Assembly: GCA_027491075.1 (NCBI GenBank)
Contig: JAIXWX010000025.1
Span: forward strand, 310,001 to 374,000
Reading direction: 5' to 3'
Source of the DNA: Flavobacteriales bacterium
GTDB lineage: Bacteria; Bacteroidota; Bacteroidia; Flavobacteriales_D; Sanyastnellaceae
Length of the DNA: 64,000 nt
Of this stretch, positions 587 through 4,987 are shown one piece after another. Position 1 is the stretch's first letter. Each line of letters begins with the position of its first letter. A program made the translations under genes and the position numbers. Under the pieces are notes generated by a model. It was given only the letters and a program-made list of their open reading frames with translations, was not told where the DNA came from and searched no databases.

Positions 587-3460
587 ATGAGCGAGATAGA
601 ATATTTGAATGAAAATGCATTGCCGGGCCAGCTCGGCAATTTGTTTGTAGTGTTGAGCTTTGTTTCTGCCCTGTTTGCTACGGTGGCCTATTTCATGTCC
701 ACTAAAAGCAATGGTATAAACGATATCTGGAAACGCCCTGCACGTTTTGCTTTCTACGTCCATGGAGTTTCTGTAATTGGAGTGATTGGTACCTTGCTGT
801 ACATGCTGTTCAATCACATGTATGAATACAAGTATGTGTGGGAACACTTGAACAACGAGATGCCCATGCAGTATGTGTTTAGCTGTATGTGGGAAGGACA
901 AGAGGGAAGTTTCTTGTTGTGGACTTTTTGGCATGTGATCCTTGGAGTATTGCTCATTCGATGGTCGAAGTCATGGGAGCCTTGGGTGATGACCATTGTA
1001 GCGTTAGTGGAAGTATTCCTTGCGTCGATGCTCCTAGGAGTTTATTTCGGTGACTTCCAGTTCGGAAGCAATCCATTTTTATTGAATCGCGAGGCCGCGG
1101 TCAATGTTGGTTTACCTTGGACACTCAAGGCAAATTACCTCGATTTACCGACCTTTCAAAATGGACGTGGACTAAATCCTCTTCTTCAGAATTACTGGAT
1201 GACAATTCACCCACCTACTCTTTTCCTTGGTTTCGCCTCGACGTTGATTCCTTTTGCTTATGCCATTGCTGGTTTGTGGAAAGGCGATCGCTCTGGTTGG
1301 ATAAAACCCGCCATTCCTTGGGCATTTTTTGGAGTGATGATTTTAGGTACTGGAATTTTGATGGGAGGTGCTTGGGCCTATGAAGCATTAGGCTTCGGTG
1401 GATTTTGGGCATGGGATCCGGTGGAGAATGCATCATTAGTCCCATGGCTCACCTTTGTGGCTTCTGCCCACTTGTTGGTGATTAATCAAAGAAAACAGAC
1501 TTCCGTTTTTTCAGCCTTGGTTCTTACCATGAGCACATTCATCCTTGTGCTGTATTCTACTTTTCTAACCCGTAGCGGAGTATTGGGTGATAGCAGTGTA
1601 CACAGTTTTGTAGACAGTGGAATATTGGCTCAACTTCTCGTTTACCTGCTTGTATTTACCGCATTGAGCACCTACTTGCTTTCAGCATCCAAGGCCATGA
1701 GATGGTTCTACGGCTTATTATCTCTGGCTTTATTTATAACAGCGGTGGTGAGCGTCATGAGCGCTGATGAGACGATCGCCAATGCAGAAGGAGCATTGCC
1801 AGGTGATGGAACCATTGTCCCTCAATTGACGCTGATCTTTGTTGTCGTCTCTTTAGTATATATGTATTTAAGCTACCGTAAGGAGTATCGCGTTTCGGTA
1901 GAACAAGAAGAAGCGCTTTGGTCAAGAGAATTTTGGATGTTCATTGGAGCGCTCGTCTTGACGCTTTCGGCCATTCACGTTACGGTTCAAACCAGTGTAA
2001 ACGTGGGCAATATTTTTCTAGCTCCATTTGAAAATGCCTTCGCAGCATTGCACAAGAGCACTGGATGGGAATTTGCTAAGCGTTTATCTGAACACAATTT
2101 TGCAGCGCCAGCGGAGAAAGAAAGATTCGATGCGTATCATAAAGTACAAATTCCATTGGCTTTTATATTGTTCTTGATCGTTGCGATTGGTCAATTCTTG
2201 AAATACAGAAAAACGGAGTTTAGTTATTTTATAAAAAAGATTTCATTGAGCTTGGTGCTTGCATTTTTGGTAACCATTACACTGGGTTTCTTTGTGAGTT
2301 TTGAGAGCAACTCAGGTCCTCTTTATGCATTGGTTTTCTCAACCTTTTTCGCACTCTTTGCAAATGTTGACTATGCATGGCGTATTTTAAAAGGAAAAAT
2401 GGATGTAATAGGTGCGAGCGTAGCACACATGGGATTTGCGCTATTGATTATCGGTGCAGTGATAAGCACATCGCAGTCATTCTTTATTTCAGAAAACAAG
2501 GTTGGAAATGTCAAGGAATTGAGCGAAGACTTTGACAATACAGAAGACATGTTGATCTACAAAGGAGACACCATGGTGATGGGCGATTACTTCGTTCATT
2601 TCAAAGATAAGTACAAGAGTGGCAATAGACTTTACTGCACGATAGATTACTTGAAGAAGCAACCCAAAGACTACAAACAGGGGGAATACGTAGTGGTACA
2701 AGGAGCGATTTTCCGTGCAACACGCGATCACGTTGCAGGGGACAATTTCGTGAAAGATTGGAGCGGCGATTCTCTTTGGGTGCAAGTCACTCCAGCCGAA
2801 GCCGATGCTCACGATACTCCAGATTGGACGCCAGGAACACCAGGAGAGAAGTTGTTTACCCTCGAACCCACTTTGTTGTTTGCGAAGGATCAAACCAGCA
2901 GAGAACCAAGTATCAAGCATTTCATAGGTAAAGATTTATACACCTATATCAAGTACACTGAAACGGAAATGAAATCCGATTCCGCGGGCTACCTTGATCC
3001 CAAGTCTGGAGTCATAGCATATAAAACACCCGTGCGACTTTCTGAAACGGTAACGTTTTCATTGGACACACTTGTCCGTGTAGACTCACTTCCAGAAGGT
3101 CTTCCAAAGAATGTGATTCTTAAAAAAGGCAATGCCATTCTCACGGATGGAGCTACCACCGAGACACTCGTGATTGCATCCGTAGCAATGGACAATGGAA
3201 CACCGCTTACATTCCCGGTAGAGAGCAAGAAATTCAAGATGCTCTTATCCATTAAAGAAGGAGCAGACGGAAAGCCTGAGTTGACTATGCAGCAGCACAG
3301 CAGCGCAGTGAAAGACATGTTGATCCTAAGCGCCGAAGTATTTCCACAAATAAATGTATTGTGGTTGGGATGTTTGATCATGGTGATTGGAACCACCATG
3401 GCTATTCGTCATCGCATTAAATTAGCAAAAAAATCAAACGCCGATGTCTCCGTTTCTTAA
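587..3460 (+). CDS. ccmF: Haem lyase subunit CcmF (long form)
   Basis: CcmF is the multi-spanning inner-membrane protein that takes haem from CcmE and joins it to the CXXCH cysteines of apocytochromes. The 957-residue product carries the tryptophan-rich WWD haem-handling segment at about residues 263-287 (WAYEALGFGGFWAWDPVENA) inside a set of about 14 membrane helices. A conserved TIHPPTLFLGF segment lies at about 206-216. Proteobacterial CcmF is about 650 residues; the excess lies mainly in a large soluble region at about residues 640-930, just before the last helix and presumably periplasmic. It follows ccmE directly and overlaps the next gene by 17 bases. No ccmG or ccmH follows. Confidence 0.95.
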   Translation: MSEIEYLNENALPGQLGNLFVVLSFVSALFATVAYFMSTKSNGINDIWKRPARFAFYVHGVSVIGVIGTLLYMLFNHMYEYKYVWEHLNNEMPMQYVFSCMWEGQEGSFLLWTFWHVILGVLLIRWSKSWEPWVMTIVALVEVFLASMLLGVYFGDFQFGSNPFLLNREAAVNVGLPWTLKANYLDLPTFQNGRGLNPLLQNYWMTIHPPTLFLGFASTLIPFAYAIAGLWKGDRSGWIKPAIPWAFFGVMILGTGILMGGAWAYEALGFGGFWAWDPVENASLVPWLTFVASAHLLVINQRKQTSVFSALVLTMSTFILVLYSTFLTRSGVLGDSSVHSFVDSGILAQLLVYLLVFTALSTYLLSASKAMRWFYGLLSLALFITAVVSVMSADETIANAEGALPGDGTIVPQLTLIFVVVSLVYMYLSYRKEYRVSVEQEEALWSREFWMFIGALVLTLSAIHVTVQTSVNVGNIFLAPFENAFAALHKSTGWEFAKRLSEHNFAAPAEKERFDAYHKVQIPLAFILFLIVAIGQFLKYRKTEFSYFIKKISLSLVLAFLVTITLGFFVSFESNSGPLYALVFSTFFALFANVDYAWRILKGKMDVIGASVAHMGFALLIIGAVISTSQSFFISENKVGNVKELSEDFDNTEDMLIYKGDTMVMGDYFVHFKDKYKSGNRLYCTIDYLKKQPKDYKQGEYVVVQGAIFRATRDHVAGDNFVKDWSGDSLWVQVTPAEADAHDTPDWTPGTPGEKLFTLEPTLLFAKDQTSREPSIKHFIGKDLYTYIKYTETEMKSDSAGYLDPKSGVIAYKTPVRLSETVTFSLDTLVRVDSLPEGLPKNVILKKGNAILTDGATTETLVIASVAMDNGTPLTFPVESKKFKMLLSIKEGADGKPELTMQQHSSAVKDMLILSAEVFPQINVLWLGCLIMVIGTTMAIRHRIKLAKKSNADVSVS

Positions 3461-3848
3461 AAGACTTTTAGCCATAATTTTTGGCGTATTGTCCGCTTTT
3501 GTGATTATCACCATTGTAGAAGGAGTGGGGTCCAATATATATCCCATCCCTGAAGGTTCAGATCCCAACTCCATGGAAGGGTTGAGAAAAATTATGGAGT
3601 CGCGTCCGGTAGGCGCATTTTTAATAGTCATACTTGGGCACTTATTGGGAGCATTGAGTGGTGGAGCGGTAGCGAAATTGATAGATAGATCCAATTTCAG
3701 AAACGCCTTGATTGTAGGAGGATTATTGATGGTTTTTGGATTATTAAATCTTGTTTCTCTGCCCCATCCATTGTGGTTTTGGCTTGATCTATTTATATAC
3801 ATGCCCGCAGCTTATTTAGGAGCCAAGCTCGTCAGCGGTAAGAGGTAA
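3444..3848 (+). CDS. Small four-helix membrane protein of unknown function
   Basis: A 134-residue hydrophobic protein with four predicted membrane helices (about residues 6-28, 52-72, 88-108 and 112-130) and a short polar loop containing IYPIPEGSDPN after helix 1. The gene starts inside the last codons of ccmF, so it is probably co-transcribed and translationally coupled. I do not recognise a named family and assign no function. It could be an accessory of the cytochrome maturation operon or simply its last passenger gene. Downstream lie the tandem repeats rather than a clear terminator. Confidence 0.75.
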   Translation: MSPFLKRLLAIIFGVLSAFVIITIVEGVGSNIYPIPEGSDPNSMEGLRKIMESRPVGAFLIVILGHLLGALSGGAVAKLIDRSNFRNALIVGGLLMVFGLLNLVSLPHPLWFWLDLFIYMPAAYLGAKLVSGKR

Positions 3849-3910
3849 TCTTCGAGCAGCTAAGAATGAGAACATGAAGACGATGAAACTAAAGCTTGTT
3901 GCATGGTTTT

Positions 3911-4064
3911 ATTCGCAAAACCTGATTCGCAAAACCTGATTCGCAAGACCTGATTCGCAAAACCTGATTCGCGAAACCTGATTCGCAAAACCTGATTCGC
4001 AAGACCTGATTCGCAAGACCTGATTCGCAAAACCTGATTCGCAAAACCTGATTCGCAATGACTG
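3911..4064. repeat. Tandem array of eleven 14-bp units
   Basis: Eleven consecutive copies of a 14-base unit, consensus ATTCGCAAAACCTG, without spacers. Variants carry A-to-G at unit position 8 (AAGACC, three copies) or position 7 (GCGAAACC, one copy), and the last unit is degenerate (CAATGACTG). A twelfth partial unit (ATTCGG) leads into the next array. The array sits between two convergent genes and is not coding: the minus-strand frame through it is only a periodic translation of the repeat. Confidence 0.97.
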
Positions 4065-4070
4065 ATTCGG

Positions 4071-4147
4071 AATTCCAAATTCCAAATTCTAAACTCTAAA
4101 TTCTAAACTCCAAATTCCAAATTCCAAATTCCAAATTCTAAATTCCC
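4071..4147. repeat. Tandem array of eleven 7-bp units
   Basis: Eleven consecutive heptamers, consensus AATTCCA, with T variants at position 6 and C variants at position 3. It directly follows the 14-bp array and ends just before the stop codon of the minus-strand transporter at 4154. The period is exactly half that of the neighbouring array, and both units contain an ATTC core. Heptamer arrays of this general kind occur between genes in Bacteroidota and cyanobacteria; their function is not established. Confidence 0.95.
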
Positions 4148-4153
4148 CTTCAT

Positions 4154-4987
4154 TCACTTCACTTTGGCATTTAGTACAACCCCCATCACGACTAGGAGCA
4201 TTCCGAGAAAACTAAGTAGATAGATTTCTTCTCCAAAAAAGAAGTAGCCGATGATGACGGCGAAAATGGCTCCGAAATAATTCCATGGGGCTATTTTACT
4301 GGCTACGTCGCTATGCAAGGCTAAGGTCATCAGATATTGAGCGGCATGAGCAAAAATGCCCATGAAAATGAGCCACAACCATTCTAATCCAACAGGGGTT
4401 ACAAAGTGATAAAAGCACCAAATACCGGTGATGGGTATCGCTACCATCGGGTTGTAGAGCACAATGGTCATGGCATGATCTGTTCCTTTGCTTTTTATAA
4501 TGCTATTGTATGCAAGGCCTGCAAAGAATGCAGAAGCAACTCCAATCATTAGCCAAAACCCAGAAACGCGACTGTCAAATCCTTTGATCATAGCTGCACC
4601 AATAAAGGAAACAGCGAAGAACAACCATCGGATGGGCTTGACTTTTTGTTGGTTGAGTTGAGTAGCAATCAAAACGGTGAATACTGGCGATAAGTATTGA
4701 ATCGTACTTGCACTAGCCAAAGGCATGTTCATCACGGTAGAAAAGAAAAGCATCAAGGCTATCAGCCCCATGAGCCCTCGCATAATGAGCCAAAACTTGT
4801 TGTTGCCCCAAAAACTGATACCATAGTATTTGATAAAAGAAGCCGCAAAAAGGAAAGAAATCACAGAACGAAAAAGGATCAATTCGTGAACCGGTATGTG
4901 CGCGTGGGATTTGGCAATAGCATTGACGACTGCAAAGCAGAACACCGATGCCACCATAAATAGGATACCCTTTCCTTCTGAACTCAA
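4154..4987 (-). CDS. EamA/DMT-family transporter
   Basis: A 277-residue integral membrane protein with about ten hydrophobic helices arranged as two EamA repeats, typical of the drug/metabolite transporter superfamily of inner-membrane exporters. The substrate cannot be read from sequence. The first codon is TTG (positions 4987-4985); an in-frame stop lies just upstream and the first ATG is codon 11, within helix 1, so the TTG start is preferred. It lies 34 bases behind the alpha/beta hydrolase on the same strand and may share its transcript. The 3' end abuts the heptamer array. Confidence 0.88.
   Translation of the reverse strand: MSSEGKGILFMVASVFCFAVVNAIAKSHAHIPVHELILFRSVISFLFAASFIKYYGISFWGNNKFWLIMRGLMGLIALMLFFSTVMNMPLASASTIQYLSPVFTVLIATQLNQQKVKPIRWLFFAVSFIGAAMIKGFDSRVSGFWLMIGVASAFFAGLAYNSIIKSKGTDHAMTIVLYNPMVAIPITGIWCFYHFVTPVGLEWLWLIFMGIFAHAAQYLMTLALHSDVASKIAPWNYFGAIFAVIIGYFFFGEEIYLLSFLGMLLVVMGVVLNAKVK

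What the first reader, a model, noticed from the sequence alone, without database searches (positions are those of the whole stretch)
3911..4147. Two abutting tandem arrays, 11 x 14 bp and 11 x 7 bp
A 14-bp array with eleven units passes through one degenerate unit directly into a 7-bp array with eleven units. The periods are exactly 2:1, and both units have an ATTC core. The whole block fills the gap between two convergent genes. This suggests a common origin by slippage, or a multi-site binding platform phased at 7/14 bp.
Basis: seen in the sequence. Interest (0 to 1): 0.5.

Follow-up and report, generated by a model that had tools for sequence, protein, structure and literature searches.

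The report
Solo heptamer array of S23p element
Two back-to-back tandem repeats between two bacterial genes belong to a scattered family of 7-base repeats, and repeats of the same kind flank, in mirror image, a small gene of unknown function (S23p) that looks like part of a tiny mobile element, which gives a puzzling class of bacterial repeats a testable origin.

Summary
The arrays are real: eleven 14-bp units (3911-4064), one transition unit, about eleven 7-bp units (4071-4146). They lie in a 305-bp gap that measures only 8 and 4 bp in two relatives, so the block is an insertion. Both units are dispersed in this genome, at five sites in the order [ATTCGCAA-N6]n then [AAYTCYA]n.

Unexpected link: in this genome inverted AAYTCYA arrays flank a gene of Pfam PF05635 (S23p, "23S rRNA intervening sequence protein"). 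Of 40 S23p genes in 9 genomes, 25 have a 6-9 bp array within 300 bp; so have all 16 plasmid S23p loci examined. Inverted flank similarity is significant for 39 of 50 S23p genes against 4 of 105 control ORFs. The 13 most similar S23p pairs carry units differing by at most one base. On Nostoc plasmids the S23p-plus-arrays segment is present or absent at matching junctions, and ORF-less copies exist.

I conclude that the window carries a solo, ORF-less array of an S23p element family, grown by 7-bp slippage. The element's structure is well supported; S23p as mobiliser and the window's descent from such an element are inferred.

The parts
3911..4064 (+). 14-bp array, 11 units ATTCGCAA-N6 (N6 mostly AACCTG, three GACCTG, last TGACTG)
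   Evidence: TRF and sequence; same unit at C25:409799-409911 and C15:4485-4574
4065..4071 (+). transition unit ATTCGGA, keeps the 7-bp phase
   Evidence: sequence
4071..4146 (+). 7-bp array, about 11 units AAYTCYA
   Evidence: TRF; same unit flanks the S23p gene at C17:95093-95407 of this genome
3849..3910 (.). 62-bp non-repetitive left part of the gap, origin unknown
   Evidence: no similar stretch in the other loci held (best local score 13.5 against 62)
3444..3848 (+). left convergent gene, 134 aa, no Pfam match
   Evidence: ORF, Pfam
4154..4987 (-). right convergent gene, EamA-family transporter
   Evidence: ORF, Pfam PF00892 E 2e-22

Best explanation
The block is a solo (ORF-less, one-sided) copy of the array ends of a small mobile element. 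The complete element is an S23p gene (PF05635, about 115-140 codons) closely flanked by 7-bp (in some clades 8-bp) tandem arrays, mostly inverted to each other; it sits at short gene junctions next to stop codons. SHOWN: the arrays, their dispersal, the array-free matching junction in two relatives, inverted arrays around S23p genes, covariation of unit and S23p, presence or absence of S23p-plus-arrays on plasmids, ORF-less inverted copies. INFERRED: that S23p recognises its cognate heptamer and moves the element and ORF-less copies in trans; that the window block came from such a copy; that its copy number then changed by slippage in 7-bp steps; that the 14-mer is a fixed dimer of two heptamer types (ATTCGCA and ATGACTR-like).
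For: Dispersed family, same order at five sites. Matching junction without array in L109 (8 bp) and L110 (4 bp). In this genome AAYTCYA arrays lie, inverted, on both sides of the S23p gene at C17:95093; arrays around the second S23p gene (C19:84136) contain TGACTAA (8 times in the left array), as do the edge units of 14-mer arrays (ATTCGCAATGACTA). 25 of 40 S23p genes have an array within 300 bp, and with arrays on both sides the inverted match is better in 8 of 11. 16 of 16 plasmid S23p loci have nearby arrays, 13 on both sides. Inverted-flank test: 39 of 50 S23p genes, 2 of 47 window ORFs, 2 of 58 neighbouring ORFs. Unit and protein covary: 13 of 13 closest pairs within one base, 4 of 2000 permutations as extreme. 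Filled, empty and ORF-less states at Nostoc plasmid junctions. One S23p clade with one unit in three unrelated gene contexts. In G002 an S23p element sits directly after fba, where G000 and G001 have arrays only.
Against: The window block is one-sided: no inverted partner (score 6) and no S23p gene beside it. 15 of 40 S23p genes have no array within 300 bp and 11 of 50 fail the inverted test. Three of 11 two-sided loci are not better inverted than direct (two of G194 direct, G000 C19 a tie). The ATTCGCAA core itself was not found at an S23p gene of this genome. Unit order is not shared between arrays (45 pairs, lowest p 0.07), so copying of whole blocks is not seen. S23p has no known catalytic activity (recalled). 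The 13 closest pairs are not independent, and one is the same site in two species.
Confidence: 0.6

Rival explanations
1. Ordinary long simple sequence repeats. Heptamers expand by polymerase slippage, spread by ectopic copying, and survive at gene 3' ends because little is harmed there; S23p genes merely share the same tolerated gaps.
For: Heptamers are the commonest class of long bacterial repeats and slippage at 7 nt was proposed for them (Mrazek 2007 as cited in PMC4679880, section 3). Arrays without an S23p gene are many. 6 of 13 array sites of G000 lie in convergent gaps, none in a divergent one, by rough ORF calls.
Against: Sharing gaps does not predict inverted arrays on the two sides of one gene (39 of 50 against 4 of 105), units that follow the S23p protein, or joint presence and absence of gene and arrays.
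Confidence: 0.25
2. A functional 3' element, such as a Rho loading site, terminator, insulator or RNA-binding platform between convergent genes, phased at 7/14 nt.
For: The + strand heptamers contain no G and hold a TC every 7 nt; the + strand RNA is unstructured (98 of 100 shuffles fold at least as well). No terminator-like site was found within 3849-4153. G000 arrays lie next to stop codons.
Against: In tandem gaps of G000 the gene that ends at the array reads the other, C-poor strand in 6 of 7. Units change between congeners at the same site, and some arrays lie in divergent gaps in other genomes. The two relatives do without any array here.
Confidence: 0.1
3. S23p genes are passengers that insert into heptamer arrays already present, so arrays are the target and not part of the element.
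For: Arrays without S23p genes are common; at fba two congeners have arrays only and one has S23p.
Against: Insertion into one array would leave direct, not inverted, flanks. The empty plasmid junctions L260, L262 and L263 hold no array. One S23p clade keeps its unit at unrelated sites.
Confidence: 0.05

Closest known systems
23S rRNA intervening sequence (IVS) with S23p ORF, Coxiella burnetii (PMC4990558, passages read)
   Same: S23p ORF between inverted repeats; tandem heptamers (GACAGAT) just upstream of the ORF, their number differing between strains; called a selfish element
   Different: Lies inside 23S rRNA and is cut out by RNase III; ours lie between genes, have arrays on both sides in many cases, ORF-less copies, and units that differ by S23p clade
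TAACTGA heptamer repeats of Beggiatoaceae, cyanobacteria and Bacteroidetes (PMC4679880)
   Same: Intergenic 7-bp direct repeats, patchy distribution over the same phyla, long arrays with other heptamers in Bacteroidetes, contigs ending in repeats, relatives without them
   Different: Read there as translational regulators; the terms S23, four helix and intervening do not occur in that text. Whether those arrays flank S23p genes was not tested
GGGAATC / GGGGA(T/C)T heptamers of Xanthomonas and Nostoc (PMC4692102)
   Same: 7-bp intergenic arrays, often within 50 bp of a stop codon or overlapping it
   Different: Studied as G-quadruplexes; most units found here are not G-runs. Xanthomonas has the S23p-type protein XCC0516 (PDB 2gsc) but its flanks were not tested
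REP / REPIN and RAYT transposases (PMC3116915, passages read)
   Same: Works like: a gene flanked by its cognate repeats, with many ORF-less copies elsewhere in the genome
   Different: RAYT is a Y1 transposase and REPs are short palindromes; S23p is unrelated and the repeats are tandem heptamers

Membership tests
Heptamer long simple sequence repeats (LSSR) | Tandem units of 5-11 nt, longer than chance | tested here: met
   7-bp array 88% self-match against at most 57% in 2000 shuffles; the 14-bp array exceeds the unit limit unless read as heptamer dimers
Heptamer long simple sequence repeats (LSSR) | Copy number varies between strains | not testable with these tools
   No second strain of this species held; S23p plasmid relatives differ by 7 bp
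S23p / IVS element | Contains an S23p (PF05635) ORF | tested here: not met
   No such ORF in the window gap; the window block is therefore at most an ORF-less relative
S23p / IVS element | Ends are inverted repeats | tested here: not met
   Window block is one-sided, inverted score 6; complete S23p loci pass in 39 of 50
S23p / IVS element | Same repeat unit as an S23p element of the same genome | tested here: met
   AAYTCYA arrays on both sides of the S23p gene at C17:95093
S23p / IVS element | Lies within 23S rRNA | tested here: not met
   The window block lies between protein genes
REP/RAYT system | Y1 (RAYT) transposase beside the repeats | tested here: not met
   The gene between the arrays is PF05635
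MITE | Terminal inverted repeats and target site duplication | tested here: inconclusive
   ORF-less inverted copies seen on Nostoc plasmids; no clear duplication, because target and array ends look alike
CRISPR array | Repeats separated by different spacers | tested here: not met
   N6 is nearly constant within each array

The most novel reading that the evidence does not exclude
S23p (PF05635) proteins are a previously unrecognised class of sequence-specific mobilising protein. Each clade recognises its own heptamer, moves a 0.4-kb element bounded by inverted heptamer arrays, and spreads ORF-less copies in trans. Much of the scattered heptamer satellite DNA of Bacteroidota and cyanobacteria, and perhaps of Xanthomonas and Beggiatoaceae, would be the debris of such elements, and the rRNA IVS the special case that landed in 23S rRNA.
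Probability: 0.45. Interest if true: 0.9.

Novelty: new variant of a known kind. Interest (0 to 1): 0.7.

Why it matters
Two old puzzles may be one: why 7-bp tandem repeats are so common and so patchy in bacteria, and what the widespread S23p / four-helix-bundle genes do. If such arrays are the ends of S23p elements, they have a source, a cognate protein to test, and a reason for lying at gene ends. My searches found no paper that links S23p genes with heptamer arrays in general. These cover open-licence PMC papers only, several listings were cut to the best 10-15, and one search was swamped by unrelated papers (1,566), so the claim is weak. The nearest is the Coxiella IVS paper, which reports heptamers in that one case.

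Tried and rejected
Chance: excluded by shuffles. CRISPR: no spacers. Coding repeat: 7 and 14 are not multiples of 3, and heptamers with T at position 6 give TAA (+ strand) and TAG (- strand). RNA structure: + strand folds worse than shuffles (z 1.76), - strand z -1.69, 3 of 100 shuffles as good; Rfam on 3400-4600 gave one match far below its cut-off, taken as chance. Rho loading site: argued against by strand in tandem gaps. A fixed orientation to the neighbouring gene: suggested in G000 (6 of 7 tandem gaps by rough ORF calls) but not upheld by 14 loci of other genomes, some in divergent gaps; dropped. Copying of whole array blocks between sites: 45 pairs, lowest p 0.07. Viral carriage: the patterns matched 1 and 12 viral stretches, not read further; three S23p queries found no relative in viral contigs, one query none in phages.

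Full report
OBSERVATION. The window holds eleven 14-bp units at 3911-4064, a 7-bp transition unit, and about eleven 7-bp units at 4071-4146, all in one 7-bp phase. Shuffles never approach this periodicity. The gap between the convergent genes is 305 bp; its first 62 bp are not repetitive.

SITE. The neighbours are a 134-aa protein without a Pfam match and an EamA transporter. In two Flavobacteriales MAG records (76% and 78% identical EamA) the same genes converge, but the stop codons are 8 bp (L109) and 4 bp (L110) apart. From identity and position these are probably the congeners G002 and G001. The block is thus most simply an insertion of about 0.3 kb in this lineage. Other family members with an EamA homologue (59 of 101 genomes) were not examined at this junction.

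FAMILY. Both units are dispersed in the genome. The 14-bp type is ATTCGCAA-N6, with N6 nearly constant within an array and different between arrays (AACCTG, TTTTTA, GGGGGA; one 15-bp form with AGGACGG). The 7-bp type is AAYTCYA: in 144 units of ten arrays position 4 is always T, position 5 is C in 139, and positions 3 and 6 vary between C and T (82 T and 61 C; 79 T and 60 C) without association (Fisher p 0.30). The order 14-mer then 7-mer is clear at five sites of G000 (window, C25:408554, C15 end, C17:68001, C32 end), with a degenerate sixth at C2:16894. Four contig ends (C25, C15, C10, C32) lie inside arrays. C25 and C15 probably adjoin: patatin and cutC, which end these contigs, are neighbours in G001. 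Five of 200 genomes searched (own counted) hold the 14-bp pattern: own, G001, and G110, G158 and G194, where it is mainly (ATTCGCA)n. Five of 100 hold four AAYTCYA-like units with one mismatch allowed: own, G001, G002, G044 and G079, the last no better than its reversed control.

TURNOVER. At the 3' end of fba all three congeners have heptamers, but different ones; at patatin and cutC G000 and G001 both have arrays with different units (G002 gave no cutC match). A fourth site, downstream of the pirin gene (C17:68001), was not followed to a verdict: in G001 (L175) the same two genes converge with only a short non-array gap, and in G002 the two genes lie on separate contigs that carry other heptamers. 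G002 has its own heptamer GAGAATY (20 hits; none in G000 or G001; among 60 genomes only G067 also has it, 2 hits). Two ORFs of G000, patatin and cutC, end inside arrays.

THE S23p LINK. One ORF between two inverted AAYTCYA arrays in G000 matched PF05635, 23S_rRNA_IVP. I searched PF05635 in ten genomes, chosen partly because they hold arrays: 40 matches in 9 of 10 (39 over the cut-off), none in the 14 control genomes. Within 300 bp, 25 of 40 have a 6-9 bp array (left 19, right 17, both 11). The rate is 1.58 array-bearing flank sides per kb near the gene and 0.13 arrays per kb (11 in 86.7 kb) further out. In the 11 two-sided cases the inverted match of the units is better in 8, the direct one in 2 (both G194), one is a tie (G000 C19).

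PLASMIDS. tblastn found S23p genes on 7 and 18 plasmid records, 20 distinct. I fetched 16 of the 20, leaving out three further Riemerella records and a second Calothrix brevissima plasmid. All 16 have 7- or 8-bp repeats near the gene, 13 on both sides by the scan, 3 on the 3' side only. The inverted-flank test aligns the 5' flank with the reverse complement of the 3' flank (200 nt plus 45 nt into the ORF) and compares with 200 shuffles at p of 0.005 or less: 25 of 34 flavobacterial and 14 of 16 plasmid S23p genes pass, 2 of 47 window ORFs and 2 of 58 neighbouring ORFs pass. Six of the 40 flavobacterial genes were left out (L205, L220, L228 with stops; L218, L231 cut by contig ends; L233 weak); L212 and L226, each with one stop, were kept. 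The shuffles keep base composition only, so tandem arrays of low complexity make the test lenient; the ORF controls meet this only in part.

COVARIATION. For 40 loci with arrays (25 flavobacterial, 15 plasmid; loci without arrays and L250 left out) unit distance falls with protein similarity. All 13 pairs with a relative score of 0.69 or more differ by at most one base; the mean is 1.97 for 37 pairs above 0.45 and 3.60 for 621 pairs at or below 0.3; 4 of 2000 permutations are as extreme (Mantel rho -0.19). The pairs overlap, several are paralogues of one genome, L255/L256 is one site in two species, and in a few pairs the opposite strand fits as well. Two pairs at 0.63-0.64 have units of different length.

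PRESENCE AND ABSENCE. On Nostoc plasmids one junction is empty in L262 and L263 and holds a 420-bp S23p segment in L258 and L264 (and an interrupted one in L265). The TraM junction has 42 bp in L260 (L267 is also without S23p), 250 bp of ORF-less inverted repeats in L259, and 479 or 486 bp with S23p in L255 and L256. A third junction is empty in L262 and L263 and filled in L249. In a cas6-cas4 gap Anabaena 90 has S23p and Dolichospermum has not, but the latter gap holds other sequence, so this case is weaker. ORF-less inverted copies occur in L266 and L258; one lies inside the S23p ORF of L265. One S23p clade with TCAGGAG-type units lies in three unrelated gene contexts.

WHAT IT MOST LIKELY IS. 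The window block is a solo array of this element family that then grew by slippage. Recognition of heptamers by S23p is inferred from covariation alone. The only PDB sequence match of the G000 protein is XCC0516 of Xanthomonas campestris (2gsc, E 1.2e-4); Xanthomonas is also the genus with GGGAATC heptamers near stop codons (PMC4692102). That S23p resembles the Avd protein of diversity-generating retroelements is recalled, not tested.

LITERATURE SEEN. PMC4679880: outline with abstract, sections 3 and 10, passages. PMC4692102: passages, sections 13 and 15. PMC4990558, PMC6749651, PMC3542288, PMC3116915: passages only. All others: search listings. Elhai 2008 on small dispersed repeats and Mazel 1990 on cyanobacterial STRR are recalled, not read.

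LIMITS. Gene calls around arrays are rough ORF calls. The array list of G000 is incomplete, since one search listed 100 of 125 matches. No functional test was possible.

Noticed in passing
L245 1486-1842; L246 1483-1851; L251 1513-1872: S23p genes with heptamer or octamer flanks sit inside CRISPR-Cas gene clusters of cyanobacterial plasmids (between cas10/cmr2 and cmr3; between cas6 and cas4).
   Followed up: partly
L209 (G000 C17:94933-95625) and window 4071-4146: AAYTCYA units vary almost only between C and T at positions 3 and 6, in near-equal shares; GAGAATY of G002 also has one C/T position. Unexplained.
   Followed up: partly
L265 988-1625 (Nostoc plasmid pNPM1): An ORF-less inverted heptamer element lies inside the S23p ORF of another element: nesting.
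   Followed up: no
L055 5774-5791; L056 4365-4389; L177 about 1233-1250: ORFs of patatin, CutC and a Vut_1-like transporter end inside heptamer arrays, which supply the stop codon.
   Followed up: partly
L057 943-1290 (G000 C17:62943-63290): A G-rich (ATTCGCAAGGGGGA)n array is followed by a short inverted ATTCGCAA pair, a possible ORF-less inverted element.
   Followed up: no
L195, L206, L210, L212, L244, L245: Some S23p clades have 8-bp in place of 7-bp units, shared between related proteins (L206/L212, L195/L210).
   Followed up: partly
L180 1940 region (G001 fba): The fba frame of G001 holds one in-frame TAG, perhaps an assembly error.
   Followed up: no
L198 / L187 (G002 C84:40471-41100): The 3' end of fba is a reused site: an S23p element in G002, arrays alone in G000 and G001.
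   Followed up: partly
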